A stretch of DNA of 64,000 nt from a bacterium (lineage in GTDB: Bacteria > Bacillota_I > Bacilli_A > RF39 > UBA660). Below the pieces are notes generated by a model, which was not told the origin of the DNA, did no database searches, and saw only the letters and a list, made by a program, of their open reading frames with translations. Each line of letters begins with the position of its first letter. Within the stretch, counting starts at the first letter, position 1. The translations under genes were made by a program, and so were the position numbers. Positions 13,733-49,186 of this stretch are shown here, in pieces. Location of the stretch: positions 7,097 through 71,096 of the forward strand of contig SFSZ01000006.1 in assembly GCA_004563275.1 (NCBI GenBank). Reading direction: 5' to 3'.

Positions 13733-14272
13733 ATGAAAAATAAAATATTAGTCTTTAGTTTATTATTATTTAGTTTAATTCTTTTTGGGTGTGAATTTAA
13801 TAATACCCCAACTAAAAAAGTTGAATCACTCTTAATGAAATATCAAAATAATTCTGAATCAGTAAGTAAAGAATTAGATGATTATGTTAAAAGTGAAGAA
13901 ATAGAACTCGCATATCAAGATAAATACAAAGAAGTATTTTTAAAACAATATCGAGATTTAAAATATGAAATAAAAGATGAAAAAATTGATGGAAATACTG
14001 CAGAAGTAACTGCTCAAATAGAAGTATATGATTATTATAAAACTCAAACTGAAGTAAGCACTTACATAACAAATCATCAAGACGAATTTAATACTAATGG
14101 TATTTTCGATAATAATAAAGTATTAGAATATAAAATTAAAGAATTAACCAATACTAAAGATAAAGTAACTTATACTATTGTATTTAATTTAACTAAAGTA
14201 AATGATACTTGGACAATAGATAATCTATCAGAAGAAGAATTAGAAAAAATTCATGGAACATACGCCCATTAG
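13733..14272 (+). CDS. putative lipoprotein, 179 aa
   Basis: The N-terminus is a typical lipoprotein signal: Lys-rich start, hydrophobic core and lipobox LFGC with Cys at residue 20. Lipid attachment by Lgt and cleavage by Lsp would anchor it on the outer face of the membrane. The mature part is a helix (VESLLMKYQNNS) followed by alternating strands with a VNDTWTIDNLSEEE end, resembling small NTF2-like or DUF4878-type lipoproteins. That family call is tentative. The ribosome binding site is strong and it has its own promoter and terminator, so it is a stand-alone unit before the D,D-carboxypeptidase gene. Confidence 0.8.
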   Translation: MKNKILVFSLLLFSLILFGCEFNNTPTKKVESLLMKYQNNSESVSKELDDYVKSEEIELAYQDKYKEVFLKQYRDLKYEIKDEKIDGNTAEVTAQIEVYDYYKTQTEVSTYITNHQDEFNTNGIFDNNKVLEYKIKELTNTKDKVTYTIVFNLTKVNDTWTIDNLSEEELEKIHGTYAH

Positions 14273-14293
14273 AATTAATCTAATTCTTTTTTT
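14271..14293 (+). terminator. rho-independent terminator
   Basis: Stem AGAATTA (14271-14277) pairs with TAATTCT (14281-14287), followed by Ts. Confidence 0.75.
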
Positions 14294-14330
14294 ATATTTT
14301 TAGAATAATATTATTTAGGTGATTAATTAA

Positions 14331-15464
14331 ATGAAAAAAATAATATTATTTATTCTTTTACTATTTCCAATTTTTGTTAAAGCTGAAGATCTAACTCCTA
14401 ATGCTGAATCAGGTATCTTAATTGAATATTCTACTGGAAAAATCCTTTATAGTAAAAAAATAGATGAAAAACTAGCACCAGCATCTATGACTAAGATTAT
14501 GACTCTTTTACTTATTATGGAAGCAGTTGAAGAAGGTAAAATAAATTTAGATGATAATATCTCCATCAGCACTAATGCTTCATCTATGGGTGGATCCCAA
14601 GTGTTTTTAGACCCTAATACGGAAATGAAAGCTGAAGAATTAATTAAATCAATTGCCATTGCCTCAGCTAATGATAGTGCTGTTGCGATGGCTGAAGCTA
14701 TTTCTGGTACAACCGCTAACTTTGTATCTAGAATGAACTCCAGAGCTAAAGAACTAGGATGTAAAAACACTAATTTTAAAAACGTCCATGGCTTAGATGA
14801 AGAAGGCCATTATTCAACTGCTTATGATATGTCATTAATAGCTAGAGAACTTCTTAAACATGAACAAATACTTAAATACACAAGTACCTATGAAGCCTAT
14901 TTAAACAAGCCTAATGGGACTTCAACCTGGATGGTCAATACCAATAAACTAATCAAATATTATACTGGCTTAGATGGCTTAAAAACAGGCTTTACTAAGA
15001 CAGCAGGTTACTGTCTAACATCAACAGCTAAAAGAAATGATATGCGATTAATAAGTGTTGTTATGAAAGAACCATCAAGTCAAGTTAGAAATTCAGAAAC
15101 TATTAGCTTATTAAACTATGGATTTTCCAACTATAAAATTAAAACTATCTTAAAAAAAGATCAAAAACTAGGAACCATTGAAGTTCAAAATGGTAAAAAA
15201 GAACTTGCAGACATCACCATATTAGAAGATGCTACAAATCTAGAATCAATTAATGATAATAAAGAATATAGTTTTAATATTGTAACCGATAAAGTAAAAG
15301 CACCTCTTAAAAAAGGTGATAAAGTAGGTACCCTAGAACTAACCGAACAAGGAACAGTTATTAAAAGATTAAATATTACAGTTAAAGAAAATATTCCTAA
15401 AGCTAATATCTGGGATTTATACAAAAGAAACTTTAAATCTATAATTATCGGTAGTATCCATTAA
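14331..15464 (+). CDS. D-alanyl-D-alanine carboxypeptidase (penicillin-binding protein 5/6 type)
   Basis: The 377-aa protein has a cleavable signal peptide (residues 1-18, ending VKA-ED) and all three serine-peptidase motifs of peptidase family S11. These are S-x-x-K as SMTK (Ser52, Lys55), S-x-N as SAN near residue 112, and K-T-G in LKTGFT near residue 217. It trims the terminal D-Ala from peptidoglycan pentapeptides outside the membrane. The C-terminal beta domain (after residue 270, DQKLGTIEVQNGKKE) is typical of DacA/DacF. Unlike classical DacA, no obvious amphipathic C-terminal membrane helix is seen. The ribosome binding site is AGGTGATT. Terminators lie on both sides. Confidence 0.93.
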   Translation: MKKIILFILLLFPIFVKAEDLTPNAESGILIEYSTGKILYSKKIDEKLAPASMTKIMTLLLIMEAVEEGKINLDDNISISTNASSMGGSQVFLDPNTEMKAEELIKSIAIASANDSAVAMAEAISGTTANFVSRMNSRAKELGCKNTNFKNVHGLDEEGHYSTAYDMSLIARELLKHEQILKYTSTYEAYLNKPNGTSTWMVNTNKLIKYYTGLDGLKTGFTKTAGYCLTSTAKRNDMRLISVVMKEPSSQVRNSETISLLNYGFSNYKIKTILKKDQKLGTIEVQNGKKELADITILEDATNLESINDNKEYSFNIVTDKVKAPLKKGDKVGTLELTEQGTVIKRLNITVKENIPKANIWDLYKRNFKSIIIGSIH

Positions 15465-17175: not shown

Positions 17176-17205
17176 TTGACAAGCAATAATTAAATGTGAT
17201 ATATA
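17176..17205 (+). promoter_or_regulatory. strong promoter of the peptide-biosynthesis operon
   Basis: Consensus -35 TTGACA (17176-17181), 18-base spacer, TG-A-TATATA extended -10 (17197-17205); an overlapping TATAAT at 17202-17207 is also possible. It is one of the best -35 matches in the window and lies about 30 bases before the precursor ATG. Confidence 0.8.
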
Positions 17206-17236
17206 ATAATTAATAAAATTATTAGGAGGTACTTGT

Positions 17237-17326
17237 ATGGTTAAATTTTTAAAAAGAGTTTTCAGAAAAAAAAGTGATTTAACTGATAAACAACTTTTAG
17301 CAAGCTGCTGTGTACATAGAAGCTAA
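17237..17326 (+). CDS. candidate RiPP precursor peptide, 29 aa
   Basis: This small gene has a perfect AGGAGGT site 8 bases before ATG 17237, a consensus promoter upstream and a terminator just after its stop. The product has a basic amphipathic N-terminal half (MVKFLKRVFRKK), a polar middle (SDLTDKQLLAS) and a short end CCVHRS. This looks like a leader-core precursor whose C-terminal Cys/His/Arg/Ser residues would be modified. Immediately downstream are a phosphotransferase, a radical SAM/SPASM enzyme, a ThiF-like adenylating enzyme and a PLP enzyme, the classic context of a ribosomally made, modified peptide. ThiF/MccB enzymes act on a peptide C-terminus, fitting the short C-terminal core. 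The precursor role is inference from context; no homologue is recognised. Confidence 0.75.
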   Translation: MVKFLKRVFRKKSDLTDKQLLASCCVHRS

Positions 17327-17327
17327 C

Positions 17328-17355
17328 AAAAAAAGCATTTAAAAAATGCTTTTTT
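17328..17355 (+). terminator. intra-operon terminator/attenuator after the precursor gene
   Basis: Stem AAAAAGCATTT (17330-17340) pairs with AAATGCTTTTT (17344-17354) around a 3-base loop, with its 3' arm forming the T-run. It probably lets most transcripts stop after the precursor and a minority read into the enzyme genes. No new -35/-10 promoter with good spacing was seen between it and ATG 17378, although TATAAT occurs in the gap (17361-17366). Confidence 0.75.
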
Positions 17356-17377
17356 GCATATTATAATAGGAGAAGTA

Positions 17378-19282
17378 ATGAAAATAATTGAATTAAAAGA
17401 AGCAAAGAATAATTGCGGTGGAAAAGCCTATGGATTATATAAACTAATTCAAGCAGGTATAAATGTACCTGAAGGATTTGTTATCGAAGACTCACAATCA
17501 CTATCAAATGAAAATATTTCTGAATTAGAAAACAAATTAAAAGAATTTGCTAAAAATGACAAATTAGCGGTTAGATCATCAGCATCAGATGAAGACGGTA
17601 ATATAAAATCATTTGCTGGAATTTTTGAAACTGTATTAAATGTCAAAAATGATATTAATGATGTTACAAAAGCTATTAAAAAAGTAAATGATAGTGCTAA
17701 TACTGATAAAACCAAGAATTATTCAAACAACAAATTCAAGATGAATGTCGTAGTGCAAAAAATGATAAATCCTAGAATATCTGGTATATGTTTTACCAAT
17801 GCTATTGATTTTTCTGGTAAAAGATGTGCTATGTTTGAATATGTTCAAGGAATCGGAGAAACATTAGTTAGTGGCAAATCAAATTCAAATAGAATAATTG
17901 TTAAATATAATGATGATAAATTAGATTATAACCATGCTAGATTAGAAGGAAGTTTAATAAACTTTAATGGTTTTGAAGAACTATGCAATTCGATAACTAA
18001 AGCAATTAATAACTATGATAAAAATCTAGATATAGAGTGGTGTATAGATGAAAATAATATAGCATATCTATTACAAGCAAGACCCGTAACAAAAGAAGTA
18101 TTTATTGAAAAGAGTAGTGACAGTGATCATACAAATACAATAGTTGCATCAAGAGGATGTGTTGAATCTGAAACATATGTAATTGATTCGGATTCAGATT
18201 ATGAACAAGTAAAACATGAAATAGAAAACTTTCCTGAAAATAAAATTTTAGTTTGTGATTATACTGAAACATATTACCTACCAGCAATGAAAAAAGCAAA
18301 AGGAATAATCACAAATACAGGTTCAGCTTTATGTCATGCTGCAATCGTGTCAAGAGAATTAAACATTCCTTGTATTGTAGGCTATGATAATGCAACAACA
18401 AAATTTAAAACCGGAACTCTAATCAAGTTAGACGCTAATAATAACTCAATTTCTATCGGAAAAGAAAATATGTTAGTATCAAAAGAATATAAATTAAACT
18501 TTGGAGAACTTGATTGTTTTGATAATTACATTGAATTTATGCTAGATAAAACAAAAATATTTATTGAAAATACATATGGTGGAATATATGTTCATAAACC
18601 GGATAGATTAAATAGTTCAGAGATTAATGAAATTGAAATATTTGTTAGAAAAACATTTGGTCAAGTACCGATATTTTCATCAGATGAAAATAAATACTTA
18701 TGGATTAAAGAAGTAAATCGTTTTCATAAATTACCTTATTTTTCAAAATATTATGAAAGAGTAAAAAATAGTTCAAAAAGCTTTAATGAATTATCTTTAA
18801 CTAAAATTCAGTCAGACTTAATTAATATAGCAAAACAATATTTAACATATAAAAAGTCATCAAAAGACATAATATTAAATATTTTTATCGATGAAATAAT
18901 TGCATCAATAAATGAACTACTAGATGGAATAATCCCATTTGGTTATCCCATGTATGAATCTTATGTTCAATCATTACAATTATTAGATAATGAAGGAAAA
19001 ACATATAATGATTTATTTGGAAATACTTTATTTAAAAATGAAAAATTAATAAAAATCCAAAAATTCTTACACATAGTTTCAAAAATAAAAGACGAAAGTT
19101 ACCAAATTATATGGGATATGGGCGGAAATGGTCCGGATTATTTTGAAAAAAGAGATGAAAAATTAAAACAAATATTAAATGAAAATAATCTTAATGAAGA
19201 TTTCATGGATACATTTTATGAAATTTATCTTTCTAAATATTATAAAAAATTACTGGAGATAGTTGAAAAAAATGAATTATAA
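17378..19282 (+). CDS. PEP-synthase/rifampicin-phosphotransferase-like ATP-dependent dikinase
   Basis: The 634-aa protein begins with a PPDK/PEP-synthase ATP-grasp domain: GGKAYGLYKL (residues 14-23), AVRSSASDEDG near 63, FEYVQGIGE and the closing AYLLQARPVT near 235. This is followed by the swivelling phosphohistidine domain TGSALCHAAIVSREL, with the catalytic His near residue 319, and RELNIPCIVG. The last ~250 residues are unlike the PEP-binding barrel and not recognised, as in Rph-type enzymes, where this end carries the substrate site. The family transfers the beta-phosphate of ATP through His to an acceptor, releasing AMP and Pi. In this operon the acceptor may be the peptide or a small building block (inference). 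ATG 17378 has AGGAGAAG upstream. Its 3' end overlaps the radical SAM gene by 11 bp. Confidence 0.82.
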   Translation: MKIIELKEAKNNCGGKAYGLYKLIQAGINVPEGFVIEDSQSLSNENISELENKLKEFAKNDKLAVRSSASDEDGNIKSFAGIFETVLNVKNDINDVTKAIKKVNDSANTDKTKNYSNNKFKMNVVVQKMINPRISGICFTNAIDFSGKRCAMFEYVQGIGETLVSGKSNSNRIIVKYNDDKLDYNHARLEGSLINFNGFEELCNSITKAINNYDKNLDIEWCIDENNIAYLLQARPVTKEVFIEKSSDSDHTNTIVASRGCVESETYVIDSDSDYEQVKHEIENFPENKILVCDYTETYYLPAMKKAKGIITNTGSALCHAAIVSRELNIPCIVGYDNATTKFKTGTLIKLDANNNSISIGKENMLVSKEYKLNFGELDCFDNYIEFMLDKTKIFIENTYGGIYVHKPDRLNSSEINEIEIFVRKTFGQVPIFSSDENKYLWIKEVNRFHKLPYFSKYYERVKNSSKSFNELSLTKIQSDLINIAKQYLTYKKSSKDIILNIFIDEIIASINELLDGIIPFGYPMYESYVQSLQLLDNEGKTYNDLFGNTLFKNEKLIKIQKFLHIVSKIKDESYQIIWDMGGNGPDYFEKRDEKLKQILNENNLNEDFMDTFYEIYLSKYYKKLLEIVEKNEL

Positions 19283-20543
19283 CTTATCAATCATAAATAA
19301 AAAATACAAATATGTAAACAATAAATTTCCAGTAACAGTTTTTATAAAAATAACATCCAAATGTCTGTTTAAATGCCATTTTTGCTCTCAAGGAGATTCT
19401 TGTAATGAAGAAATATCTATAGAGGATATGAAAATAATTTTAAATAAACTAAAGAGAAATGGAGTACTAAGAATATTTTATACAGGAGGAGAACCATTTT
19501 TACACACTAAGTTTTTAGAAATAGTAAAATATGGAAAAGAGTTAGGGTTTTGTCAACTTGTTATAACAAATGGGTACTTGCTTGAAAAAAAATCTGCAAA
19601 ACAAATCTTAAAATATATTGATTGTTTATCAATATCCATCCATGGAACAGAAAGTTTTCATAACACAATTGTTGAAAATAAACATAGCTATGAAAAAATA
19701 ATTTCAGGAATTGAAATGCTAAAAAAAGAATTTCCTGAAATAATCTTAGATATGTGTTTTACAGCTTCAAAAGAAAATGCAACTAAAGAAAATATAGAAA
19801 GCGTAGCTAAATTGTGTAAAAAATATAATCTTTTATTAACGATTACTAGAGCATATATAATTGGTAATGAAAAAAATCATGATTTTTCTTATATCAAACC
19901 AATGATTCAAACAATAGATAAGCTCATAAATAAAGGCTACAAAATAGAGATAGGACATTGTTTAGTGCCTTGTGCATTAAATGATAATGCAACTTATTTA
20001 ACCTCATGTTGTACTGCTGGTATTAATTTCTGTGCAATAGATATTAACGGAGATGTCAAAATTTGTGCAAATTCGAATCAAGTAATAGGAAATGTTTTGA
20101 ACACAAGATTCAAAAAAATATGGAGAAAAAATAACAATATCTTAAATAAACATATTAACAATTTATCAATAAAATGTAAAAATTGTTCTTACTTTGTCCA
20201 ATGCGCCGGTGGATGTAAGTGTGAAGATGGAATCATGGAAAATGGGAATGCTGACTTATTATATTTTTACATTTTAGAAAAAGAATGGCAAAAAATATAC
20301 AATTTTTACATTAAAACACAAATTGCAGAAATAAAAAAAGTTGCCATTAACAAATATTTATTAATTGGAAAAAATAATTGTATCATAAATAACAAAACAT
20401 ATAAAATGATAAAAAAAATAGATTTTTCAAAAACTTTTATTGAAAATCAACAAATATCAAAGATAGATAAAGAGTTATTATTACAACTATATAAAGACGG
20501 TTTTTTAGGGGTGGTAGAAAATGAAAAAATATATATTAAATGA
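19272..20543 (+). CDS. radical SAM/SPASM peptide-modifying enzyme
   Basis: The 423-aa protein has the radical SAM motif C-x3-C-x2-C as CLFKCHFC (Cys31, 35, 38), TGGEPFLH binding SAM, and a C-terminal SPASM region. The SPASM part has CCTAGINFCAIDINGDVKIC followed by CKNCSYFVQCAGGCKC, for auxiliary iron-sulfur clusters. This places it with RiPP-modifying enzymes forming thioether, C-C or epimerised bonds. The final ~75 residues (after VAINKYLLIG) look like a small PqqD/RRE-like winged-helix segment that could bind the leader peptide; this is inferred from size and position only. ATG 19272 is preferred over an upstream TTG because GGAGA lies before it. It overlaps both neighbours (11 and 23 bp), implying coupled translation. 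Confidence 0.88.
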   Translation: MNYNLSIINKKYKYVNNKFPVTVFIKITSKCLFKCHFCSQGDSCNEEISIEDMKIILNKLKRNGVLRIFYTGGEPFLHTKFLEIVKYGKELGFCQLVITNGYLLEKKSAKQILKYIDCLSISIHGTESFHNTIVENKHSYEKIISGIEMLKKEFPEIILDMCFTASKENATKENIESVAKLCKKYNLLLTITRAYIIGNEKNHDFSYIKPMIQTIDKLINKGYKIEIGHCLVPCALNDNATYLTSCCTAGINFCAIDINGDVKICANSNQVIGNVLNTRFKKIWRKNNNILNKHINNLSIKCKNCSYFVQCAGGCKCEDGIMENGNADLLYFYILEKEWQKIYNFYIKTQIAEIKKVAINKYLLIGKNNCIINNKTYKMIKKIDFSKTFIENQQISKIDKELLLQLYKDGFLGVVENEKIYIK

Positions 20544-21474
20544 TAGTAAAAAAATAATATTTTTAAAGAATAATGAAATATTAGTTGAAGCAAAAAAATG
20601 TCCTAGATTAAAATTAGATAATAGTGACTATAATTCTCTTACAAATCTCTGTAAAAAATATACAATTTTTGAAAAAAATTCTATTTCAGAAGAATTATTT
20701 TCAACATTATATAAAAACAAAATAATTATTGAAGCAAATTTTAATATAAAAGATTCATATAAAACAAAATATGAAAGAAACGAATTATTTGCTTATAATT
20801 TTTTCGGTAAAAAAACATTTAAAAGTATAATTGATAAAAAAGTATTATTTATTGGTGTAGGGGGAATAGCATCTATAATAATCGATCAATTAATTTCAGT
20901 AGGAGTAGAAAATTTTAGTATCGTAGATTTTGATAAAGTTGATTTATCAAATTTAAATAGGCAATTTATTTATAAAGAAAATGATGTTGGACTATATAAA
21001 GTCGAATTGTTTAAAAACTACATTCTCTCAAAAAATAGTAATGCAAAAATAAAAATATATAATATGAAAATAGAAACTAGTAATCAAATTAATGAAATAG
21101 TAAAAAATGATAAAATAGATTTTATAGTTAATTCTGCAGACACACCACCTTGTTACTTACAAAAATATATAGTTGAATCATCACTTAAATTAAAAGTTCC
21201 TTGTATATTTGGCGGAGTAGGAATTGAAGAAGGTAGCTATGGACCATTATTAGATAGTTCTATTGGCAAAATAAATTATTTAAAACAAATTAATTCTACA
21301 TTAGATAAAATTAATTATTATTTTCCTTGTAAAAGTTCATTTGGAGTAACGAATAGTATAATATCAAATTATATGGCATGGGATATAATAATGTACATGA
21401 TGAACGAAAAAAAATATGTCAAAAGTTTAAATAAATCAATTAATATAAATTTTAAAGGAACAAAACATGATTAA
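20521..21474 (+). CDS. ThiF/E1-like adenylating enzyme (MccB-like)
   Basis: The 317-aa protein has an N-terminal ~90-residue domain that may be a RiPP recognition element, as in MccB. An adenylation domain of the ThiF/HesA/MoeB family follows. Visible are GVGGIAS (residues about 112-118, the ATP loop), IVDFDKVDLSNLNRQF (about 136-150, with the Asp and Arg that handle ATP) and FIVNSADTP. The paired C-x-x-C zinc ligands of MoeB/MccB are not evident; a single PCKSSFGVTNS segment aligns with the crossover region. Such enzymes adenylate a C-terminal carboxylate; MccB makes the peptidyl-AMP antibiotic microcin C. Here the likely substrate is the C-terminus of the 29-aa peptide (inference). It overlaps the neighbours on both sides. 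Confidence 0.85.
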   Translation: MKKYILNDSKKIIFLKNNEILVEAKKCPRLKLDNSDYNSLTNLCKKYTIFEKNSISEELFSTLYKNKIIIEANFNIKDSYKTKYERNELFAYNFFGKKTFKSIIDKKVLFIGVGGIASIIIDQLISVGVENFSIVDFDKVDLSNLNRQFIYKENDVGLYKVELFKNYILSKNSNAKIKIYNMKIETSNQINEIVKNDKIDFIVNSADTPPCYLQKYIVESSLKLKVPCIFGGVGIEEGSYGPLLDSSIGKINYLKQINSTLDKINYYFPCKSSFGVTNSIISNYMAWDIIMYMMNEKKYVKSLNKSININFKGTKHD

Positions 21475-22690
21475 AATTGCAATTGATCATATGCCATTAT
21501 CTGCAAATCCATTATCTGCAAACGACTTTGTTAGTTCTTATATATATCCATTTATTATGTGTCCACTATTCAGATATAACAATGGAAAACTTGAAAAATT
21601 GGCATGTAAAAATATTATCGTAAAAGGAAAGACCTATTGTATAGATTTAAATGATAATATTAGATATAATAATGGAACATATGCTACTATCGAAGATTAT
21701 TATGAAACTTTTGTTAAAATAATGAACAGTATTACTTACCCCAAATATTTAATTGAGAATATAAAGAAAATTAATTTAGTAAATAACAAATTAGTTATAA
21801 CGCTTAAAAGAAAAGATATATTTTTTTTACATAAATTAACATATTATTCATTTTCACCATTTAAAAACAAATTAAATTGTGGGCAATATTATATAGATAA
21901 TATTAGCGAGAATACTATAATTTTAAAAAGAAATAAATATTTTAATTTGTCTATTCTCCAAAAAGAAAATACATTAGAATTTAAAAAATATGAAAATCAT
22001 GAAGATATAAAAGCATTTTTAAATAATGAAATTCAAGTAACAAACATAACTACATTTCCCTTAGAACTTGTAAAAGAATTACAGCCAGAAATAAAAGAAT
22101 CAAATTTAATGTTTGTTTTGAAATTTAGTCCTAATTTAATGTTAAAAAAACACAAAAAATTTAGACAATATATTGCTCATATTATTGATAAAAATAAAAT
22201 TAATAAAAAACTTAATAATATGTTCATTATCAAAAATGATTTTTGTTTAAATAATGGAGCCAGTATAAATATAAATTATAACGTAAAAAAGCAAAAAAAT
22301 TTAACATATACACAAAATATTAAACTTGGTTATACCGAATTTTATCCAAATGGAATTATTGCAAATACAATAAAAAATCAATTGACAAAAAATAACATAA
22401 ATACAGAACTCTGCCAATATAATCTATGTGAACCAAATGATTGCGATATATATATTGACATTATTTTTTCACCATTTTTTTATGATGAATATTTTTATTT
22501 ATCAAAATATTTTAGAATAGTAAATGGAAAAAAATATAATAAACTATGCAATAAATATGAAAAAACACAAAAAGAAAAAATTTATCAAAACATTATCAAA
22601 ATATGTTATAATAACGCAAATATTATACCAATTTTAAAAAGCAAATATATATATCTATATAATAAAGCAGTTAAAGGTAGAAATGAATAA
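21467..22690 (+). CDS. solute-binding-protein family 5-like protein without signal peptide
   Basis: The 407-aa sequence has the layout of peptide/nickel ABC-transporter binding proteins (SBP_bac_5, as in DppA, YejA and the C-terminal part of SgrR). Visible are IKIAIDHMPLSANPLSAND, a Leu-Phe-Arg segment, YCIDLNDNIRYNNGTYATIEDYY-like strands, then a hinge and second lobe ending in KLGYTEFYPNG-type strands. The match is diverged and tentative. It starts directly with the first strand and has no signal peptide or lipobox, and no permease gene is nearby, so it is probably cytoplasmic. It may bind the peptide or an intermediate (inference). ATG 21467 overlaps the ThiF gene by 8 bp. Confidence 0.68.
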   Translation: MIKIAIDHMPLSANPLSANDFVSSYIYPFIMCPLFRYNNGKLEKLACKNIIVKGKTYCIDLNDNIRYNNGTYATIEDYYETFVKIMNSITYPKYLIENIKKINLVNNKLVITLKRKDIFFLHKLTYYSFSPFKNKLNCGQYYIDNISENTIILKRNKYFNLSILQKENTLEFKKYENHEDIKAFLNNEIQVTNITTFPLELVKELQPEIKESNLMFVLKFSPNLMLKKHKKFRQYIAHIIDKNKINKKLNNMFIIKNDFCLNNGASININYNVKKQKNLTYTQNIKLGYTEFYPNGIIANTIKNQLTKNNINTELCQYNLCEPNDCDIYIDIIFSPFFYDEYFYLSKYFRIVNGKKYNKLCNKYEKTQKEKIYQNIIKICYNNANIIPILKSKYIYLYNKAVKGRNE

Positions 22691-22702
22691 AGGTAAATTA
22701 TT

Positions 22703-24073
22703 ATGGTAAATAAAAGTACAAAAAAATTATTAATTGATTTAGGAAATTACGATTATTCACAAGAAGTATTAGAATTGAAAAAAATGTATGATTATATTAA
22801 TCAAGAAAAATACTTACCAAATGAAAATAAATTTAATTTTATGTCTGGAGATCCAATTAATTACAAACCCTATCCACCGATTATAAAACATTTAAAAAGA
22901 ACATTGAAGAGAAAAGATTTGTTTGAATACCAGTTAAGTAATGGAAATAAAAAAGATAAAACAATAATTAGTGATTACCTAAAAAATATAGGCATAAATG
23001 CTAATGAAGATAATATAACTTTTACTTATTCGACAACCCATGCATTTAATTTAATATTTGACTGTTTAGGAAAAAGTGGCGATGGCATTATTATTCCATC
23101 ACCTAATTATGGATTATTCGATTTTATTCCAGAACGATATGGATTAAAAGTGATTCCATTGACACTTAAAGAAGATGATAACTGGCTTATAAACATAGAA
23201 GACTTTGAAAAAAAATTAAAAAACTTTAATAGTCAAAACAAAGATTTTAAAATAAAATTTTTTTATAACATGAATCCACATAATCCGACTGGAAAAGTGA
23301 TGAGTGCTAAGGATACTGATATAATAAAGAAAATAGGTGAATTATCATTAAAATATGGCTTCTATGTAATCGATGATATGATTTATAGAGATTTAACTTT
23401 TGATAACTCGAAAATGCCCAAACCATTTTCATCCATTGAATCGTATTTTAATAACACTATATCATTATTTGGTATATCGAAATCATATAATTTAGCTTCA
23501 ATACGATCTGGCTTAATTGTATCAAACAATAAAATATCGAATATGATTCAAAATAAAATATATCATCAAATGGATTCATTATCAATTATCAATATTCAAT
23601 CATTAGTATCAGCGTTTAATGTCAATAACAAAAAACAATATAAAAAATATTTTTCGAATTTAAAAATTAAATATATGTATAATTTTGAAATATTAAAGTA
23701 TTTGATTGAAGGAATAGAAACAAAATCAACATTTAAATTAATATCAAAAGATAAATATATTAAAATAATGAAAAAGTATATTTCGAAAGAAGATTATAAT
23801 TTCGCACTACACGACACATCGAAGCTATCATTTGTTTCAAATCTCGAAGAAATTGAATCAGGATACTTTTCGTTGTTGTCAATAAAAAGTAATAAAAATT
23901 ATTATGAACTATTTGATGAGTTATTTAACAAAGCCAATATAAAAGTTATATGTGGAAATTCTATAATGTATCCCAACAATGAAGAAAAAATTATAAGAAT
24001 AAACTTTGCTGTAGAACTTAATGTGTTGATTATGGGAATTATAGAATTAAAGAAATATCTTGAAAAAAGTTAA
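22703..24073 (+). CDS. PLP-dependent aminotransferase class I/II-fold enzyme
   Basis: The 456-aa protein is a fold-type I PLP enzyme. It has the MSGDPINYKPYPP substrate loop, YNMNPHNPTGKVMS with the N-P-x-G motif, YVIDDMIYRDL with the Asp that contacts the pyridine N, and the Schiff-base Lys in FGISKSYNLA (near residue 260) followed by an Arg-Ser-Gly segment. A long insertion-like region (about residues 330-390) precedes the C-terminal small domain. The family includes transaminases, beta-decarboxylases and lyases. Here it may modify a side chain or supply an amine building block (inference). Twelve bases separate it from the upstream gene. Confidence 0.85.
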   Translation: MVNKSTKKLLIDLGNYDYSQEVLELKKMYDYINQEKYLPNENKFNFMSGDPINYKPYPPIIKHLKRTLKRKDLFEYQLSNGNKKDKTIISDYLKNIGINANEDNITFTYSTTHAFNLIFDCLGKSGDGIIIPSPNYGLFDFIPERYGLKVIPLTLKEDDNWLINIEDFEKKLKNFNSQNKDFKIKFFYNMNPHNPTGKVMSAKDTDIIKKIGELSLKYGFYVIDDMIYRDLTFDNSKMPKPFSSIESYFNNTISLFGISKSYNLASIRSGLIVSNNKISNMIQNKIYHQMDSLSIINIQSLVSAFNVNNKKQYKKYFSNLKIKYMYNFEILKYLIEGIETKSTFKLISKDKYIKIMKKYISKEDYNFALHDTSKLSFVSNLEEIESGYFSLLSIKSNKNYYELFDELFNKANIKVICGNSIMYPNNEEKIIRINFAVELNVLIMGIIELKKYLEKS

Positions 24074-24115
24074 TAAAAGTTGTAGTATACACAGAAAAAG
24101 GAGAAGAGTAATAAA

Positions 24116-25783
24116 ATGTTATTATTGAGTGCAAATAAAGTATCAAAAAATTTTGGATATGGAAGTATACTAAAAGATGTATCGTTTAGCCTTAATTCTG
24201 GAGAAATACTTTCAATTGTTGGACCAAACGGATGTGGAAAATCAACACTCATAAAAATAATAGCTGGAGTTGAAAAGTGTGATAGTGGTAGCATAAGTAT
24301 AAAAAAGAATACAAGAGTTTCATACTTAAAACAAGTTCAAGAAGAAAATGATAATAGAACAGTATATGAATATTTAAGAGATGCATTTGATGATTTATAT
24401 AAATTGGAACAATTAATAAAAAAATATGAATTATTAATTAATGACCCAGATAATAAAGATTACGAAAAAAATTTAAAAAGATATTGTGATTTAATTGACG
24501 AATTTGGTAACATGGGTGGATATGAGATAGATTCCAAAATAAATGAAGTTTGCAATGGTTTAAAAATATCATCTCAAATGTTAACTCAACCATTTTCATC
24601 TTTGAGTGGTGGAGAAAAAACAGTTATGCAACTAGCAAGATGTCTTTTGCAAAATTCTGAATTATTTTTACTAGATGAACCAACAAATCATTTAGATATA
24701 GAAAGAATAGAATGGCTTGAAAATTATTTAAAACAGTATAATGGAGCTATAGTTATTGTTTCACATGACAGATATTTCTTGAACAAAATGTCAACGAAAA
24801 TACTAGATTTATCTGATGAAGAATCAAAAATATATAATATGAATTATTCATCATATTTAGAAACAAAAGAACAAGAATTCGAAAAACAAATGAGTAATTA
24901 CAAATTACAACAAATGCAAATAAAAAAATTAGAACAGGAAATCAGTTATTTTCTACAAAAAGCAGATCAAACAAAGAGTTCTGCCATGTACGATAGAGCA
25001 AAACAATTAAAAGCAAAAGTTCAAAAAATAAAGGAATACGGTGTAAAAAAGCCTAAAAAGCCTAAAAAATTAAATATTAATTTTGTAGAAGATAATAATA
25101 TGAGTAAAACAGTTTTCGACGTACAAGATTTAACAGTATATAAAGAAGATGGAAGTATGATTCTTGATCGTGTGAATGCAAATATTACTTATGGAGATAG
25201 GGTTGCGTTAATTGGATCAAATGGAAGTGGAAAATCAACATTTATAAATACTATACTAAACAGACAAGAATTAAAATATGACGGCAAAATTGTTGTTGGG
25301 CCTAGTACGAAAATAGGATATTTACCTCAGTTTATAAAATTTGATAATCCAGATATGAAAGTAATTAGTTATTTTCAACTGGAAGCCGGAAAAGATTTTG
25401 AAACTTCAATGCGAATACTTAATAGATATCATTTTTATCAAGACAATGTTAATAAAAAAATAGGAAGTTTATCAGAAGGAGAAAAAATACGACTTGTATT
25501 AGCTATATTGTTGCAAAAATCTGTAAACTGTATAATATTTGATGAGCCAACAAATCACATAGATATAGATACAAAAGAAGTTTTAGAAGAAAGTATTGAA
25601 GATTATGATGGAACATTCATTTTTGTATCGCATGATAGATTTTTTATCAATAAGTTTGCTAATAAAACATTCGAATTTAAAGATGGAAAAATGAAATTAT
25701 TCTATGGAAATTATGATTATTATAGAGAAAAAAAGAATGAGTTGGAAGGAACAAAACAAGTTCCTAATAAAATAACAAAATAA
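24116..25783 (+). CDS. ABC-F family ATPase, probable ribosome-protection self-resistance protein
   Basis: The 555-aa protein has two ABC ATPase domains and no membrane segments. Domain 1 has Walker A GPNGCGKST (about residue 36), signature LSGGEKT and LLDEPTNHLD. Domain 2 has GSNGSGKST (about residue 368), signature LSEGEKIRL and IFDEPTNHID. Between them lies the ~80-residue charged helical linker (about residues 240-320) that in antibiotic-resistance ABC-F proteins reaches the ribosomal P-site and exit tunnel. Such proteins either regulate translation (EttA, Uup) or displace ribosome-targeting antibiotics (Vga, Lsa, Msr, VmlR). Its place at the end of a peptide-biosynthesis operon favours self-resistance, implying a ribosome-targeting product (inference). 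GGAGAAG precedes ATG 24116. Confidence 0.87.
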   Translation: MLLLSANKVSKNFGYGSILKDVSFSLNSGEILSIVGPNGCGKSTLIKIIAGVEKCDSGSISIKKNTRVSYLKQVQEENDNRTVYEYLRDAFDDLYKLEQLIKKYELLINDPDNKDYEKNLKRYCDLIDEFGNMGGYEIDSKINEVCNGLKISSQMLTQPFSSLSGGEKTVMQLARCLLQNSELFLLDEPTNHLDIERIEWLENYLKQYNGAIVIVSHDRYFLNKMSTKILDLSDEESKIYNMNYSSYLETKEQEFEKQMSNYKLQQMQIKKLEQEISYFLQKADQTKSSAMYDRAKQLKAKVQKIKEYGVKKPKKPKKLNINFVEDNNMSKTVFDVQDLTVYKEDGSMILDRVNANITYGDRVALIGSNGSGKSTFINTILNRQELKYDGKIVVGPSTKIGYLPQFIKFDNPDMKVISYFQLEAGKDFETSMRILNRYHFYQDNVNKKIGSLSEGEKIRLVLAILLQKSVNCIIFDEPTNHIDIDTKEVLEESIEDYDGTFIFVSHDRFFINKFANKTFEFKDGKMKLFYGNYDYYREKKNELEGTKQVPNKITK

Positions 25784-33465: not shown

Positions 33466-34992
33466 ATGGATACATTTTTTAAATTCTTTTATGAATTTTT
33501 ATCTCAATTCTTTTCAGGATTCGTTGAAATCTTTAAAGGCATCTGGTATGGAATTAAAGCCATGTTTAACATTCCTGAATACTTAAAAATAATTAATACC
33601 TATAAAGCTGACTTTACTATTACTGAATGGATCTTATTTGGCGTAGGAACTTTAATAGTAGTAGCTTTAATTGGTTTAGTAATATTCTTAATAGTCTTCT
33701 TAATTAGAAAATATTTAAGATTTAGAAAAACCATCGTTGAACAAGAATCAATGCTTGAAGAAATATCAACTTTAAATAACAAAGTTGCATCATTAGTTAC
33801 TGAAAGAGAAGACATCCTTGCTATGAAAGTATCTCAATTAGGACTTAAACCTGGTGAATCAGACACTGTTGAAGTAACTGAAGGTGATAAAGATTCAGTT
33901 GATCAAAATACGTCTATTAGATTCTCAAAACTAAATGATGTAGATATAAAATTTGCTAATTATAAAGTTCAAAATTATGGTAATACCTTTACTTTACCAG
34001 AATTAGTTGAATTATTTAGAAACTTTGCTGCCAGCCAGTTACATTTATATTACACATCAGAAATGATTAGATTATTTATCTCCGCTTTAGCAAGTACTAA
34101 ATTAGTTATCTTACAAGGTATTTCTGGTACAGGTAAAACATCACTTGCTTATGCTTGGGGAAAATTTTTAAAACACGATTCATGCGTTGCTTCAGTTCAA
34201 CCATCTTGGCGTGATCGAAGCGAACTTTTCGGTTATTTCAATGAATTTACCAAAAAATTTAATGAAACCGATATTTTAAAAGAATTATATGAGGCTGGAT
34301 ATACTGATGATATATATACAGTAATCCTAGATGAAATGAACATCTCTCGTGTCGAATATTACTTTGCCGAGATGCTATCAATTCTAGAAATGCCTAACAA
34401 AGATGAATGGATTGTTGAAGTAGTTTCATCATCATGGAAGAGTGACCCTAAATATTTAATTGGTGGTAAATTGCATATTCCTGCTAATGTTTGGTATATC
34501 GGAACAATCAATAACGATGACTCAACATTCATGGTAACTGATAAGGTATACGACCGTGCTATGCCACTTGATATCAATGATAAAGGACAAGTCTTCGAAC
34601 CAGAAGATACCCAAGCTCAAGATATTAATTATTCTTATCTAGATGCCCAATTTCAAAATGCCATTGCTAATAATGCAATGACTGAAGAAGTTTTAAAGAA
34701 AATTGATGCTATGGACGATTATGTTATTAAACATTTCCGTATTGCTTTCGGTAATCGTATCGTAGCTCACATGAAAAAATTTGTTCCTGTTTATGTTGCT
34801 TGTGGTGGCGATGAAGTATCTGGGGTTGATTACTTCATAGCACGTAAAATCTTAAGAAAATTTGAACAGTTAAATATTTCATATATCAGAGATGAAATAG
34901 ATGGCTTTGTCGATTTCTTAAATAAAACCTTTGGTAATAACAAAATGAAAGAATGTATTGAATACGTACAAAGATTAAAGAAAATGGCTTAA
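33466..34992 (+). CDS. membrane-anchored McrB-like AAA+ ATPase
   Basis: The 508-aa protein has an amphipathic N-terminus, one long transmembrane segment (about residues 52-82), a short coiled coil (about 87-115) and an AAA+ domain. Visible are Walker A GISGTGKTS (near residue 218), VILDEMNISR as Walker B, and GTINNDDST as sensor 1, followed by Arg-rich closing segments. VILDEMN with the GTINNDDST sensor is characteristic of McrB/MoxR-type ATPases. McrB acts with McrC in restriction, but this protein is membrane-bound and lies between signal peptidase and fibre genes. I infer a role in extracellular polymer assembly or quality control. GAGGTG precedes ATG 33466. Confidence 0.85.
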   Translation: MDTFFKFFYEFLSQFFSGFVEIFKGIWYGIKAMFNIPEYLKIINTYKADFTITEWILFGVGTLIVVALIGLVIFLIVFLIRKYLRFRKTIVEQESMLEEISTLNNKVASLVTEREDILAMKVSQLGLKPGESDTVEVTEGDKDSVDQNTSIRFSKLNDVDIKFANYKVQNYGNTFTLPELVELFRNFAASQLHLYYTSEMIRLFISALASTKLVILQGISGTGKTSLAYAWGKFLKHDSCVASVQPSWRDRSELFGYFNEFTKKFNETDILKELYEAGYTDDIYTVILDEMNISRVEYYFAEMLSILEMPNKDEWIVEVVSSSWKSDPKYLIGGKLHIPANVWYIGTINNDDSTFMVTDKVYDRAMPLDINDKGQVFEPEDTQAQDINYSYLDAQFQNAIANNAMTEEVLKKIDAMDDYVIKHFRIAFGNRIVAHMKKFVPVYVACGGDEVSGVDYFIARKILRKFEQLNISYIRDEIDGFVDFLNKTFGNNKMKECIEYVQRLKKMA

Positions 34993-40491: not shown

Positions 40492-43400
40492 ATGCTAAAA
40501 AAACTAAAGAATTTTATAACAAAATATAAATTTTTAATAGCGGGATTTGTCCTAGTTTTTTGTGTGCTTATTTTAATTTTAGTTCCTACATTTTCTGAAA
40601 AAACTACCTCAACAATTTGGGATGGAAGTATTGCATCATCTTTTACTTCTGGAGATGGAACTCAAAATAATCCATATATCATCAGTAATGGTTCTGAATT
40701 AGCATACCTATTTTCAAAATTAAAAAGCGAAGATTCCTCATCATACTTTAATAAATTTTATGAAATAGAAAATAATATAAATTTTGATAATCGTGATTTT
40801 TCTTTTATAGATGCAACTAAAACCTTTAGTGGCACTATCAATGGTAATGGTTATATCCTATCAAATTTAACTCTTAACACATGCAGCTTAAATGAAGAAA
40901 CAAATACTTGTGAATATGCTTTATTTTCTAATCTAAATAATGCCACTATTAAAAACATTAATATTTCAAATTTAACAATTACATCAAATACAATTAGTAA
41001 TCATCGTTCAGTAGCAGTCATTAGCACATCAGCAACTAATTCAAACATTAATAATATCTCACTAAGTAACATTGAATATAAAATAACAGCTGATCAAAAC
41101 TATGACATAAAATCATCCGGACTATTAATCACTGATAATCAAAACAATACTATTGAAAACATCCATATTGATTTAAAAGATAATAATTCAAATACATCAA
41201 ATTTAATTCATACTTATAATAACAGCACTGTATCAAATATAATTTATCATAAAAACAATACAAAACTATTTAATAATGTAGACACTGAAATAAGCACATC
41301 TTATGGATATAATAAAACTAATAATATAATAACTTTCGAAAATAATTATCCTGTCAAAACAATCTTAAATACATTAAATAAAAAGTCTGAGTTAACATGG
41401 GTGTATGCTGATAACACCATCAGAATGAGAAATACTGGGGTAGACGAAGTAAAAACAAAAGCAGCACCAACAAGTATAACATCTCATGAATCCGGAATAT
41501 CTGGTAGTACTATCTATATAAATGATTTTATAGCAGATTATGATTATTATATGGGACTTAACTATACAACAAGTACTAATCAAAATATTCCTACTAGAGT
41601 ATCTAAAAATATTTATAGTGATAATAATTTAGTCTATGTAGCCGCAACTTACAAAGGAGCAGACTATGATAGCAAAAATACTGGGACAGTATCATTAACT
41701 GAAAATCAAAATACCTATGTATATTATAAAGTTTATGAAATAAATACTAACAATACAACTGACCAATCAGACGATTATGTTGAATTTGATCTTATTGATA
41801 ATCCTTATGCCAATAGACCAAAAGATAAAGCCTTTAATGGCTGGTTAACAGATTATCAAAATGCAGAAGTAACTTTAGACCGAGATATTTATGTTCGTAA
41901 AGTTAAAATACCTGTAACTTATGAAAATGGCAAACCAAAGCCAATCGAAATAACTTTTAATGCTTCATGGATTCAAGCAAGAACCTATAATGTCAGTGGT
42001 AGTTATTGGAATAATGCTTTTGATTACTTCTATAATGAAGGATTAAAATTAGCAAGTGGAACAATATCATATTGGGATATTGAAGATTTATACTATGCCG
42101 TAACTGTTGCCAGAAATGGACAATTATTAGCAGGTGACTATCAACAATCAATTTGGTATGGTTGGCAAGAAGTAACAAGTAATACAACATGTCGTACTAA
42201 TGGTGGATGTCAAGTAAGAAGACCAGCAGCCGGCACTGAATATCAAGCAACCAGAACTTACTATACCTTAACAATTGATTCTGGTGGTTGGGTTGGAACA
42301 TCCTATACTTTTACGGAAACAACACCTCAATATGTTACAGAATCCAGTGACATTGTAAAAACTGGTGAGATAGCTGGTGGATTATATCGCAAAGTAACAC
42401 TACCTTATGGTGAACAATTAAATGGTTACTATAACAAACAGGGAAATTTACTTACATCAGGCACATGTACACAAGGTAATGGCTGCACATATTATGAATA
42501 TATTAATCTAAAAAATGAAAACGGTACTGTAGAAACCGTTATAGATGGAGTAGAGTATTACTTCTTAGTAACAAGAGACACAAATATAGCTTTTGTAACC
42601 GGAAACTTGACTGGTACTTGGTCTAATCAAACCAAACCGTTTACCTTAACATCAATTAACAATGGTACAAATAACATTAATAGATATTATTGGAATGCTA
42701 ATAATACCATTCAAGTTGGAGCTGATACTAGAATTGAAATGATTAGAATTAGGTCTGGACAAAATATGCAAAACGATGACACATCTCCTACATCAACCAG
42801 AACTATCTATGGAAATTATAATAATCTAAAAATCGGTAGAGGAATAACTCAATATAATAGTTATGCTTCATTTGCTTCAGCAGCTGGTGGTTCAACATCA
42901 TTTTCAGGTACAACCGTTAAAAGATATACATTTATCGTTGAATCGGGATTCTATAATAACCTAGGATTAACAACTACCACATCATCAGGTGGAACTCACT
43001 ATGTAATGGCTTATGGAACTTACGGAAACGATTATGATCGCGTTACTAATAATAACAATAATTTACTAGTTCAATACTGTGCTTCGGGCTCATGGGCTGG
43101 AACCATTAAAAGTACATCAACTAATACCATTGCTTTAAATACAACTGTTAAAAGTGGTAATATTGGTCGTAATAATTATGAATATGCTGCTGGATTATAT
43201 GTTGGTGGTCGTAACAATGGTAATCACTATGTATTAAGAAAAGCAATCATTGAAGGTGGAACTCAAGCAAATGTTATCGGTGGACCTCTTTCAGTTGAAT
43301 CAAATGTTTTAAATGGAAGTACTTTCTTAAATGATACATATATTTATGTTAAAGGTGGTACACCAGATATAATTGTTGGTGGTGCTGGAGCCTCAAGTAC

Positions 43401-49092: not shown

Positions 49093-49185
49093 ATGACAGA
49101 AGTAAGTAATGAAGAATTATTAGATATTTATAATATTTTAAAAGAATATCAAGAATTTTTAGAAAGTGAAAAACAAGGTGACTAA
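49093..49185 (+). CDS. small acidic peptide, 30 aa
   Basis: ATG 49093 is preceded by TAGGAGGT and the frame ends with TAA 49183-49185, two bases before the next start. The peptide is acidic and helical (residues 1-30, with ELLDIYNILKEYQEFLESE). It may be a real small protein or a leader that couples translation of the giant gene to the next one. No homologue is known to me. Confidence 0.5.
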   Translation: MTEVSNEELLDIYNILKEYQEFLESEKQGD

Positions 49186-49186
49186 C

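What the first reader, a model, noticed from the sequence alone, without database searches (positions are those of the whole stretch)
17176..25783. Probable undescribed RiPP-like operon: 29-aa peptide, Rph-like kinase, radical SAM, ThiF-like, SBP-like, PLP enzyme and ABC-F
Seen: a consensus promoter, a 29-aa peptide gene with a perfect ribosome binding site, then a terminator and six tightly spaced, partly overlapping genes. Established: radical SAM/SPASM enzymes and ThiF/MccB-like enzymes modify ribosomally made peptides; ABC-F proteins protect ribosomes. Inference: the set makes a modified peptide. I know of no described RiPP class combining a PEP-synthase-like phosphotransferase, a radical SAM enzyme, an MccB-like adenylase, a signal-less solute-binding fold and a PLP enzyme.
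Basis: partly seen in the sequence, partly recalled or inferred. Interest (0 to 1): 0.93.

Follow-up and report, generated by a model that had tools for sequence, protein, structure and literature searches.

The report
Arg-Ser/Arg-Cys peptide operon with peptide-grabber protein
This bacterial operon joins a gene for a 29-residue peptide ending in His-Arg-Ser to genes for predicted peptide-modifying enzymes and a cytosolic relative of peptide-capture proteins; the same core recurs in three bacterial phyla beside peptides ending in Arg-Ser or Arg-Cys, and it likely makes a modified peptide that would act on ribosomes, a kind of peptide pathway I did not find described.

Summary
The window has a 29-aa ORF (…LLASCCVHRS) with a strong ribosome binding site, a hairpin, then six tightly packed genes: dikinase-like phosphotransferase, radical SAM/SPASM, MccB-like ThiF, signal-less OppA/DppE-fold SBP, PLP enzyme, ABC-F. 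Relatives in Bacillota, Actinomycetota and Pseudomonadota keep ThiF and SBP in one operon behind a short ORF ending in Arg-Ser or Arg-Cys: 17 of 20 loci whose SBP has independent support, against 0 of 38 ThiF loci without an SBP downstream. The phosphotransferase, radical SAM and PLP enzymes are lineage-specific; other members have JmjC hydroxylases or a methyltransferase instead. A tree separates SBP-linked ThiFs from 41 others, E. coli MccB among them. The family differs from microcin C (no C-terminal Asn) and, in general, from streptococcal GRC thiolactone peptides (one precursor has no Asp or Glu). [quoted passage not shown] Chemistry and bioactivity are untested.

The parts
17176..17207 (+). 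promoter-like site: TTGACA, then TATATA at 18 nt or TATAAT at 20 nt
   Evidence: Read from the sequence; not listed by the consensus scan.
17224..17229 (+). ribosome binding site AGGAGG
   Evidence: Read from the sequence, 7 nt before ATG.
17237..17326 (+). precursor peptide, 29 aa, C-terminus CCVHRS
   Evidence: equivalent short ORFs ending R[SC] in 18 of 20 loci counted, 17 of 20 with independently supported SBP.
17329..17355 (+). hairpin between peptide and enzymes (attenuator-like)
   Evidence: -9.7 kcal/mol, z -3.3; the same gap folds at -7 kcal/mol or better in 14 of the 18 loci with an R[SC] ORF, without a shuffle control there.
17378..19282 (+). dikinase-like phosphotransferase: ATP-grasp + swivelling His domain + C-terminal domain of untested kinship
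19272..20543 (+). radical SAM/SPASM enzyme (ATG start 19272 inferred from relative L005)
   Evidence: C34, C38, C41 kept in L005; closest solved relative SkfB 6efn, E 1.4e-13.
20521..21474 (+). ThiF/MccB-like adenylyltransferase
   Evidence: ThiF Pfam E 5e-33; profile best in PDB MccB 6om4, E 2.4e-42; R147, K160, D207 invariant in 17 of 17.
21467..22690 (+). OppA/DppE-fold peptide-binding-type protein without a signal peptide
22703..24073 (+). PLP-dependent aminotransferase-fold enzyme
   Evidence: Aminotran_1_2; best NCBIfam GntC, 120 bits against a cut-off of 415; nearest solved PatB C-S lyase; K260 kept in 3 of 3.
24116..25783 (+). ABC-F protein, ribosomal-protection-like
   Evidence: NF000355 452.6 bits, cut-off 380.

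Best explanation
The operon is likely the biosynthetic locus of a ribosomally made, post-translationally modified peptide whose predicted precursor is the 29-residue peptide ending in His-Arg-Ser, and it belongs to a family in which a ThiF-like adenylyltransferase gene shares an operon with a gene for a predicted cytosolic protein of the OppA/DppE peptide-binding fold. Shown: the peptide ORF, gene order, protein families, conserved catalytic residues and recurrence of ThiF plus SBP with peptides ending in Arg-Ser or Arg-Cys. Inferred, in order: (1) the hairpin lets more peptide than enzyme be made; (2) ThiF binds the N-terminal part of the peptide and adenylates the C-terminal carboxylate, which then reacts within the Arg-Ser/Cys tail or with an amine; (3) the SBP, confined to the cytosol, clamps the short tail, as OppA/DppE clamp short peptides, to present it to the enzymes or to cage the finished product; (4) the phosphotransferase passes phosphate from ATP through His320 to the tail, most simply its Ser; (5) the radical SAM and PLP enzymes modify the conserved Arg without oxygen, the job that JmjC hydroxylases would do in other members; (6) a host peptidase and transporter release the product; (7) ABC-F protects the producer's ribosomes, so the product is likely a ribosome-targeting antibiotic.
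For: Precursor: 18 of 20 loci with an SBP have an upstream SD-preceded ORF ending R[SC], and 0 of 44 ThiF rows scored as without it do. Two controls followed. A profile built only from the window and ten relatives, to avoid circularity, still finds the SBP in L120, L002, L122, L121, L017, L040, L019 and L124 (E 3e-36 to 1.5e-5) but only weakly in L016 (5e-4) and L001 (1e-4, 1e-3); on that stricter footing 17 of 20 loci have the R[SC] ORF. With 1.4-8.8 kb of downstream DNA read (over 6.9 kb in 36 of 38), 38 of 38 other ThiF loci have no SBP downstream, and none of them had an R[SC] ORF. ThiF: a 99/99-supported branch puts all 20 SBP-labelled rows on one side and 41 rows, E. coli MccB included, on the other. 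SBP: full OppA/DppE-type fold, no signal peptide-like start in the 14 aligned. Tail as substrate: only Arg and a terminal Ser/Cys are shared by the R[SC] set; the precursor MKIKRIKPTSSRPMAVRS (L120) has no Asp or Glu, so only its C-terminal carboxylate can be activated. Phosphotransferase residues intact in 9 of 9. Arg as target: JmjC/cupin genes beside 7 of 13 loci without the phosphotransferase. Ribosome: ABC-F passes the curated cut-off in the window and in L012.
Against: No product, bond or activity has been seen. ABC-F is in the same-strand operon in only 9 of 22 loci (plus one on the other strand in L005), so a ribosomal target is unproven for the family. No exporter or leader peptidase was seen in the window's operon. 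The fold comparison scores binders of sialic acid, opines and nickel complexes like peptide binders, so the SBP's ligand is not settled; the OppA motif for a free N-terminus is not evident (my reading; motif recalled). PLP enzymes need a free amine, so action on an internal Arg is uneasy. L002 ends Arg-Thr, L122 Ser-Cys, and L121 has no clear R[SCT] peptide. L018 sits on the SBP side of the tree without an SBP beside its ThiF.
Confidence: 0.62

Rival explanations
1. The locus is a member of the streptococcal GRC class: ThiF makes a (thio)lactone between an internal acidic side chain and the C-terminal Cys/Ser, and radical SAM enzymes tailor the ring; the product may be a signal.
For: GRC also has a short precursor, a ThiF enzyme and radical SAM enzymes, and joins Glu35 to the C-terminal Cys39 (review section; with L-allo-Thr and didehydro-His). 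The type II precursors here end E-T-H-R-S with Glu four residues before Ser, the same spacing; Achromobacter has Asp there.
Against: At that position the window has Cys, Bacillus Leu, Bifidobacterium Met, Diaminobutyricibacter Ile; L120 has no acid at all. No SBP, phosphotransferase or ABC-F is listed for grc; a second radical SAM enzyme and a standalone RRE were not found among the window's six genes.
Confidence: 0.13
2. A microcin C-like Trojan-horse peptide: ThiF joins a nucleotide to the C-terminus and the product poisons a tRNA synthetase.
For: ThiF is closest to MccB among solved structures; McC precursors are short.
Against: MccB chemistry uses the C-terminal Asn (MRTGNAN; passage); none of the SBP-linked precursors listed ends in Asn. 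E. coli MccB falls on the other side of a 99/99 branch. ABC-F acts at the ribosome, not on synthetases (recalled).
Confidence: 0.08
3. The 29-aa ORF is a stalling leader peptide that controls expression of the ABC-F operon by attenuation, not a precursor; the enzymes act on a small molecule.
For: Short ORF, then a hairpin, then an operon ending in ABC-F; such leaders are known for ABC-F and erm genes (recalled).
Against: Loci without a same-strand ABC-F keep the R[SC] peptide (L005, L008, L011, L016, L017, L124, L019, L040, L120); ThiF groups without the SBP carry other short peptides with group-specific ends (CHVDQNC, WWI, VRTTAVAA), as precursors would.
Confidence: 0.1
4. The locus is an anti-phage or stress island built from ThiF/E1-like and viperin-like enzymes.
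For: PADLOC hits: ThiF to E1-E2 models (best 2.7e-13), radical SAM to pVip (1.7e-20), ABC-F to mad3 (1.8e-57).
Against: These look like generic domain matches; no E2, ubiquitin-like or JAB partner among the six genes; the pVip matches cover the radical SAM core only, and the enzyme has a SPASM domain and SkfB as closest solved relative. The SBP, phosphotransferase and PLP enzyme have no PADLOC match.
Confidence: 0.03

Closest known systems
GRC-type RaS-RiPPs of Streptococcus (GrcA/GrcB)
   Same: ThiF enzyme, radical SAM tailoring, short precursor ending in Cys39 and named for a Gly-Arg-Cys motif (that the motif is C-terminal is my inference); type II precursors share the Glu spacing.
   Different: Activated group there is a Glu side chain; here one precursor has no acid. 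No cytosolic SBP, phosphotransferase or ABC-F is listed for it. GrcB's sequence was not obtained, so kinship was not tested.
Microcin C (MccA/MccB) and its Bacillus/Yersinia cytidine relatives
   Same: MccB is the closest solved relative of the ThiF; MFS genes also in several relatives here.
   Different: C-terminal Asn and nucleotide transfer; E. coli MccB lies outside the SBP-linked side of the tree.
Enterofaecin (EnfB), IndF and pantocin (PaaA) ThiF RiPPs
   Same: One ThiF enzyme that activates a peptide carboxylate.
   Different: Different motifs (WWIVI, NWYFI; pantocin's Glu-Glu-Asn recalled) and no SBP partner in the sections read.
Rifampin phosphotransferase / PEP synthase / pyruvate phosphate dikinase
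   Same: ATP-grasp and swivelling His domains with catalytic residues.
   Different: No Pfam PEP-binding domain; residues 367-634 were not spanned in the fold comparison and are modelled mostly helical.
OppA/DppE/MppA peptide-binding proteins
   Different: No signal peptide, no transporter permease among the six genes, encoded beside ThiF.

Membership tests
RiPP pathway (general) | a short genetically encoded precursor conserved beside the enzymes | tested here: met
   17 of 20 independently supported SBP-linked loci, 0 of 38 others with that ending.
RiPP pathway (general) | enzymes modify that precursor | not testable with these tools
   needs in vitro reaction or heterologous expression.
ThiF-like adenylyltransferase (TLAT) RiPPs | ThiF with intact adenylation residues | tested here: met
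   R147, K160, D207 invariant in 17 of 17; equivalence to EnfB R167/K180/D225 inferred, not aligned.
TLAT RiPPs | N-terminal RiPP recognition element | tested here: inconclusive
   about 90 residues precede the ThiF domain, no Pfam match; MccB alignment starts inside this part.
Microcin C | precursor ends in Asn | tested here: not met
   window ends in Ser; no SBP-linked precursor listed ends in Asn.
Microcin C | nucleotide joined to the peptide | not testable with these tools
   needs mass spectrometry.
GRC RaS-RiPP | acidic residue four before a C-terminal Cys | tested here: not met
   window has Cys25 there and ends in Ser; the acid is present only in type II and Achromobacter among those checked.
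GRC RaS-RiPP | two radical SAM enzymes and a standalone RRE | tested here: not met
   one radical SAM gene in the operon; no small RRE gene seen between the listed genes.
GRC RaS-RiPP | ThiF groups with GrcB | not tested
   GrcB sequence not obtained.
Ribosomal-protection ABC-F | score above curated cut-off NF000355 | tested here: met
   452.6 against 380.
Rifampin phosphotransferase | score above the curated cut-off | tested here: not met
   116.7 against 999 for NF041857.
Rifampin phosphotransferase | rifampin-binding domain | tested here: inconclusive
   residues 367-634 not spanned by the matches shown, which proves nothing about them.
Extracytoplasmic solute-binding protein | signal peptide and transporter partner | tested here: not met
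   no strongly hydrophobic start in 14 of 14 (highest 14-residue mean 1.46, inside the fold); no transporter permease among the six genes.

The most novel reading that the evidence does not exclude
A distinct RiPP class in which a cytosolic OppA/DppE-fold protein is the obligate partner of the ThiF enzyme: it clamps the C-terminal Arg-Ser/Cys tail like a mould so that ThiF can forge a new C-terminal linkage (a strained lactone/thiolactone or Arg-derived ring), while a dikinase-type phosphotransferase and oxygen-free radical SAM/PLP chemistry replace the JmjC hydroxylases of other members, giving a small ribosome-targeting antibiotic family spread over three bacterial phyla.
Probability: 0.38. 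Interest if true: 0.9.

Novelty: new variant of a known kind. Interest (0 to 1): 0.74.

Why it matters
ThiF-RiPPs are a young class with few known chemistries. This family is marked by two simple features (C-terminal Arg-Ser/Cys and a cytosolic peptide-binding-type protein), includes named Bacillus and Bifidobacterium strains that make it directly testable, and carries ABC-F genes in some lineages that hint at a ribosomal target, so it would be a lead for both new enzymology (a phosphotransferase and an SBP-fold protein inside RiPP biosynthesis) and new antibiotics.

Tried and rejected
Rejected: microcin C membership (no C-terminal Asn; tree), GRC membership as a whole (no acid in L120; window lacks it), defence island (generic hits), leader-peptide-only reading (peptide persists without ABC-F). 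Led nowhere: viral-contig scan with the ThiF found none; protein Y of type II loci has no meaningful PDB match (best E 0.051, a cyclin) and is read as a PLP enzyme only from an invariant Lys motif; Pfam gave no RRE for the ThiF N-terminus or the radical SAM C-terminus. P0014 looks like a SufS/ThiF assembly chimera and was dropped.

Weak points of the counts. The SBP profile used was built from an alignment that already held L016, L017 and L019, so their SBP hits there are circular; one search repeats the test without them, and L016 and L001 stay weak. One search read only closed ORFs and short flanks for many loci without SBP; refetched 38 of them with wide flanks (two still short: 2.2 and 1.4 kb downstream) and found no SBP downstream; L154, L155 and L158 have SBPs with lipoprotein-like starts on the other strand or 7 kb upstream. 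The ribosome-binding-site pattern held one motif added so that L122's ORF would be seen. Thirteen duplicate loci were dropped before the count; L017 and L123 are one locus, so 21 rows became 20. The 44 rows without SBP include L001 and L097/L121 (one locus), later found to have divergent SBPs. Fisher values (5e-14, 3e-12) ignore relatedness and I do not lean on them. The third test used wrong counts: Ser is the last residue in 8 of 9 with the phosphotransferase and 3 of 9 without, too few to lean on. The organism of the window was not identified.
Full report
OBSERVATION. The promoter is near-consensus (TTGACA, 18 nt to TATATA or 20 nt to TATAAT; the scan shows no excess). The hairpin after the peptide is real by folding (z -3.3) but is A-U rich. 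Domains: PPDK_N + PEP-utilizers, Radical_SAM + SPASM, ThiF, SBP_bac_5, Aminotran_1_2, ABC-F.

RELATIVES. A search of predicted proteins gave 31 hits for the ThiF at E up to 1e-10; the thirteen used in the first family alignment are 35-97% identical to it. One scan of species genomes gave 65 loci encoding ThiF relatives; the neighbourhoods of the first 17 (L004-L020) and of three plasmid loci (L001-L003) were read. Type I, like the window: L004 and L005. Type II, L006-L011: phosphotransferase, ThiF, a decarboxylase-fold PLP protein, a protein Y of unknown family, SBP, then ABC-F in four of six; here two genes lie between ThiF and SBP, elsewhere they are neighbours. Bacillus changyiensis, B. atrophaeus, B. 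velezensis (L012-L014): ThiF, SBP, MFS, ABC-F, JmjC/cupin. Diaminobutyricibacter and Arthrobacter (L019, L040): JmjC_2 follows the SBP. Bifidobacterium (L017, L124; in the latter the SBP is split into two ORFs): methyltransferase and MFS, tested in the first. Achromobacter (L016): a weakly supported SBP and an MFS. A Bacilli genome (L120): MFS, peptide, ThiF, SBP.

PRECURSORS. Window MVKFLKRVFRKKSDLTDKQLLASCCVHRS; L005 MKEVEMTDEELLAECCVHRS; type II MIKFIKSLFSKKLDKNDLELLAICETHRS and near-copies; Bacillus MKIEELDLDTETASLVHRC and relatives; Bifidobacterium MDKNTDEFTIEDILIDDAQVVMVHRC, Diaminobutyricibacter METTSFEIEEASIDIDTLIVHRS, Achromobacter ending DTRRC; L120 MKIKRIKPTSSRPMAVRS. One script asked, for ThiF ORFs with E below 1e-35 in the loci held, whether an SBP lies downstream and whether an SD-preceded short ORF upstream ends in R[SC]. 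With SBP: 21 rows, 20 distinct loci, 18 with such an ORF; exceptions L122 (Ser-Cys) and L002 (Arg-Thr). Without: 44 rows, none. A wider SBP profile later recognised divergent SBPs beside L001 (two half-length ORFs; precursor ends Arg-Thr) and L121/L097 (no clear precursor end).

CONTROLS ON THAT COUNT. The profile contained some of the loci it scored. With a profile from the window and ten relatives only, L120, L002, L122, L121, L017, L040, L019 and L124 are still found (E 3e-36 to 1.5e-5); L016 (5e-4) and L001 (1e-4 and 1e-3) are weak. Together with the window and L004-L014 that is 20 loci, 17 with the R[SC] ORF. For the other side, 38 ThiF loci were refetched with wide flanks: none has an SBP downstream of ThiF, and none had an R[SC] ORF. 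Three of them carry SBPs with lipoprotein-like starts elsewhere. Many rows are close relatives (eleven Bacilli rows share nearly one peptide), so no p-value is leaned on.

THE THIF-SBP SIDE OF THE TREE. A tree of 68 ThiF rows has a 99/99 branch with 41 rows, E. coli MccB among them, on one side, and 27 rows on the other: all 20 SBP-labelled rows, four metagenome proteins without context, and L001, L121 and L018. L018 (Streptomyces) has no SBP beside ThiF; the one SBP-like protein there lies over 3 kb upstream. The label itself needs 7 changes on the tree as labelled, and the tool warns of long branches.

MECHANISM. The R[SC] precursors share Arg followed by a terminal Ser or Cys; two further SBP-linked ones end Arg-Thr. 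L120 has no acidic residue, so a ThiF reaction common to the family must use the C-terminal carboxylate. JmjC/cupin genes lie beside 7 of the 13 loci without the phosphotransferase (L012-L014, L019, L040, L120, L002; in the last two on the opposite strand). JmjC_2 proteins such as YcfD hydroxylate arginine (recalled). I infer that the conserved Arg is oxidised, by oxygen-dependent enzymes in these and by radical SAM/PLP chemistry in the window's lineage. The SBP would hold the short tail. In L004 only 44 residues of the radical SAM protein remain, and its precursor ends in Cys where its sister L005 has Ser: one case, not a rule.

AGAINST. ABC-F is in the same-strand operon in 9 of 22 loci, so ribosome targeting is inferred only for those lineages. 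No chemistry was observed. No exporter gene was seen in the window's operon. The sequence of GrcB, the nearest functional analogue, was not available to test.

LITERATURE. Seen: the ThiF-RiPP review PMC12250964 (outline, passages, sections 2.4, 4 and 5), part 1 of 3 of PMC12150305, passages of PMC13361665 and PMC7136475. Eight searches listed no paper that by its title or start of abstract describes this combination; the query ThiF + RiPP + 'solute-binding protein' returned 0 papers. Subscription papers and the lactic-acid-bacteria TLAT survey could not be read; that survey does report TLAT clusters with PLP and radical SAM enzymes (as cited in the review), so a partial overlap cannot be excluded.

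Noticed in passing
L004:5836-6935: Radical SAM gene shortened to 44 codons just before ThiF; the precursor of this locus ends in Cys while its sister L005 (full-length radical SAM) ends in Ser.
   Followed up: partly
L074-L077: A separate ThiF-RiPP group with 21-aa precursors ending CHVDQNC in small genomes of the order of the type II species; no SBP downstream.
   Followed up: partly
L098-L106, L108, L109: Eleven ThiF genes in Bacilli genomes with a nearly invariant 18-19-aa precursor (ten end VRTTAVAA, one VRTTLLNAT).
   Followed up: no
L002 (S. aureus plasmid pC205_2) and L001 (Lactococcus plasmid p001F): Plasmid-borne ThiF loci whose SBP-like protein is split into two adjacent half-length ORFs (weak support in L001) and whose precursors end in Arg-Thr; L002 also has a JmjC-like gene on the other strand.
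   Followed up: partly
L005:1209-2849 and 14173-14412: ABC-F is found as a full gene on the opposite strand upstream of the cluster and as a 79-codon remnant in the usual place.
   Followed up: no
window 40492-49083: A 2863-aa ORF with no Pfam match at E 1e-3; ORFs 49166-50683 and 33466-34992 also have none.
   Followed up: no
L082: ThiF locus with a candidate precursor ending in a run of cysteines (AAGCCCCCGCC).
   Followed up: no
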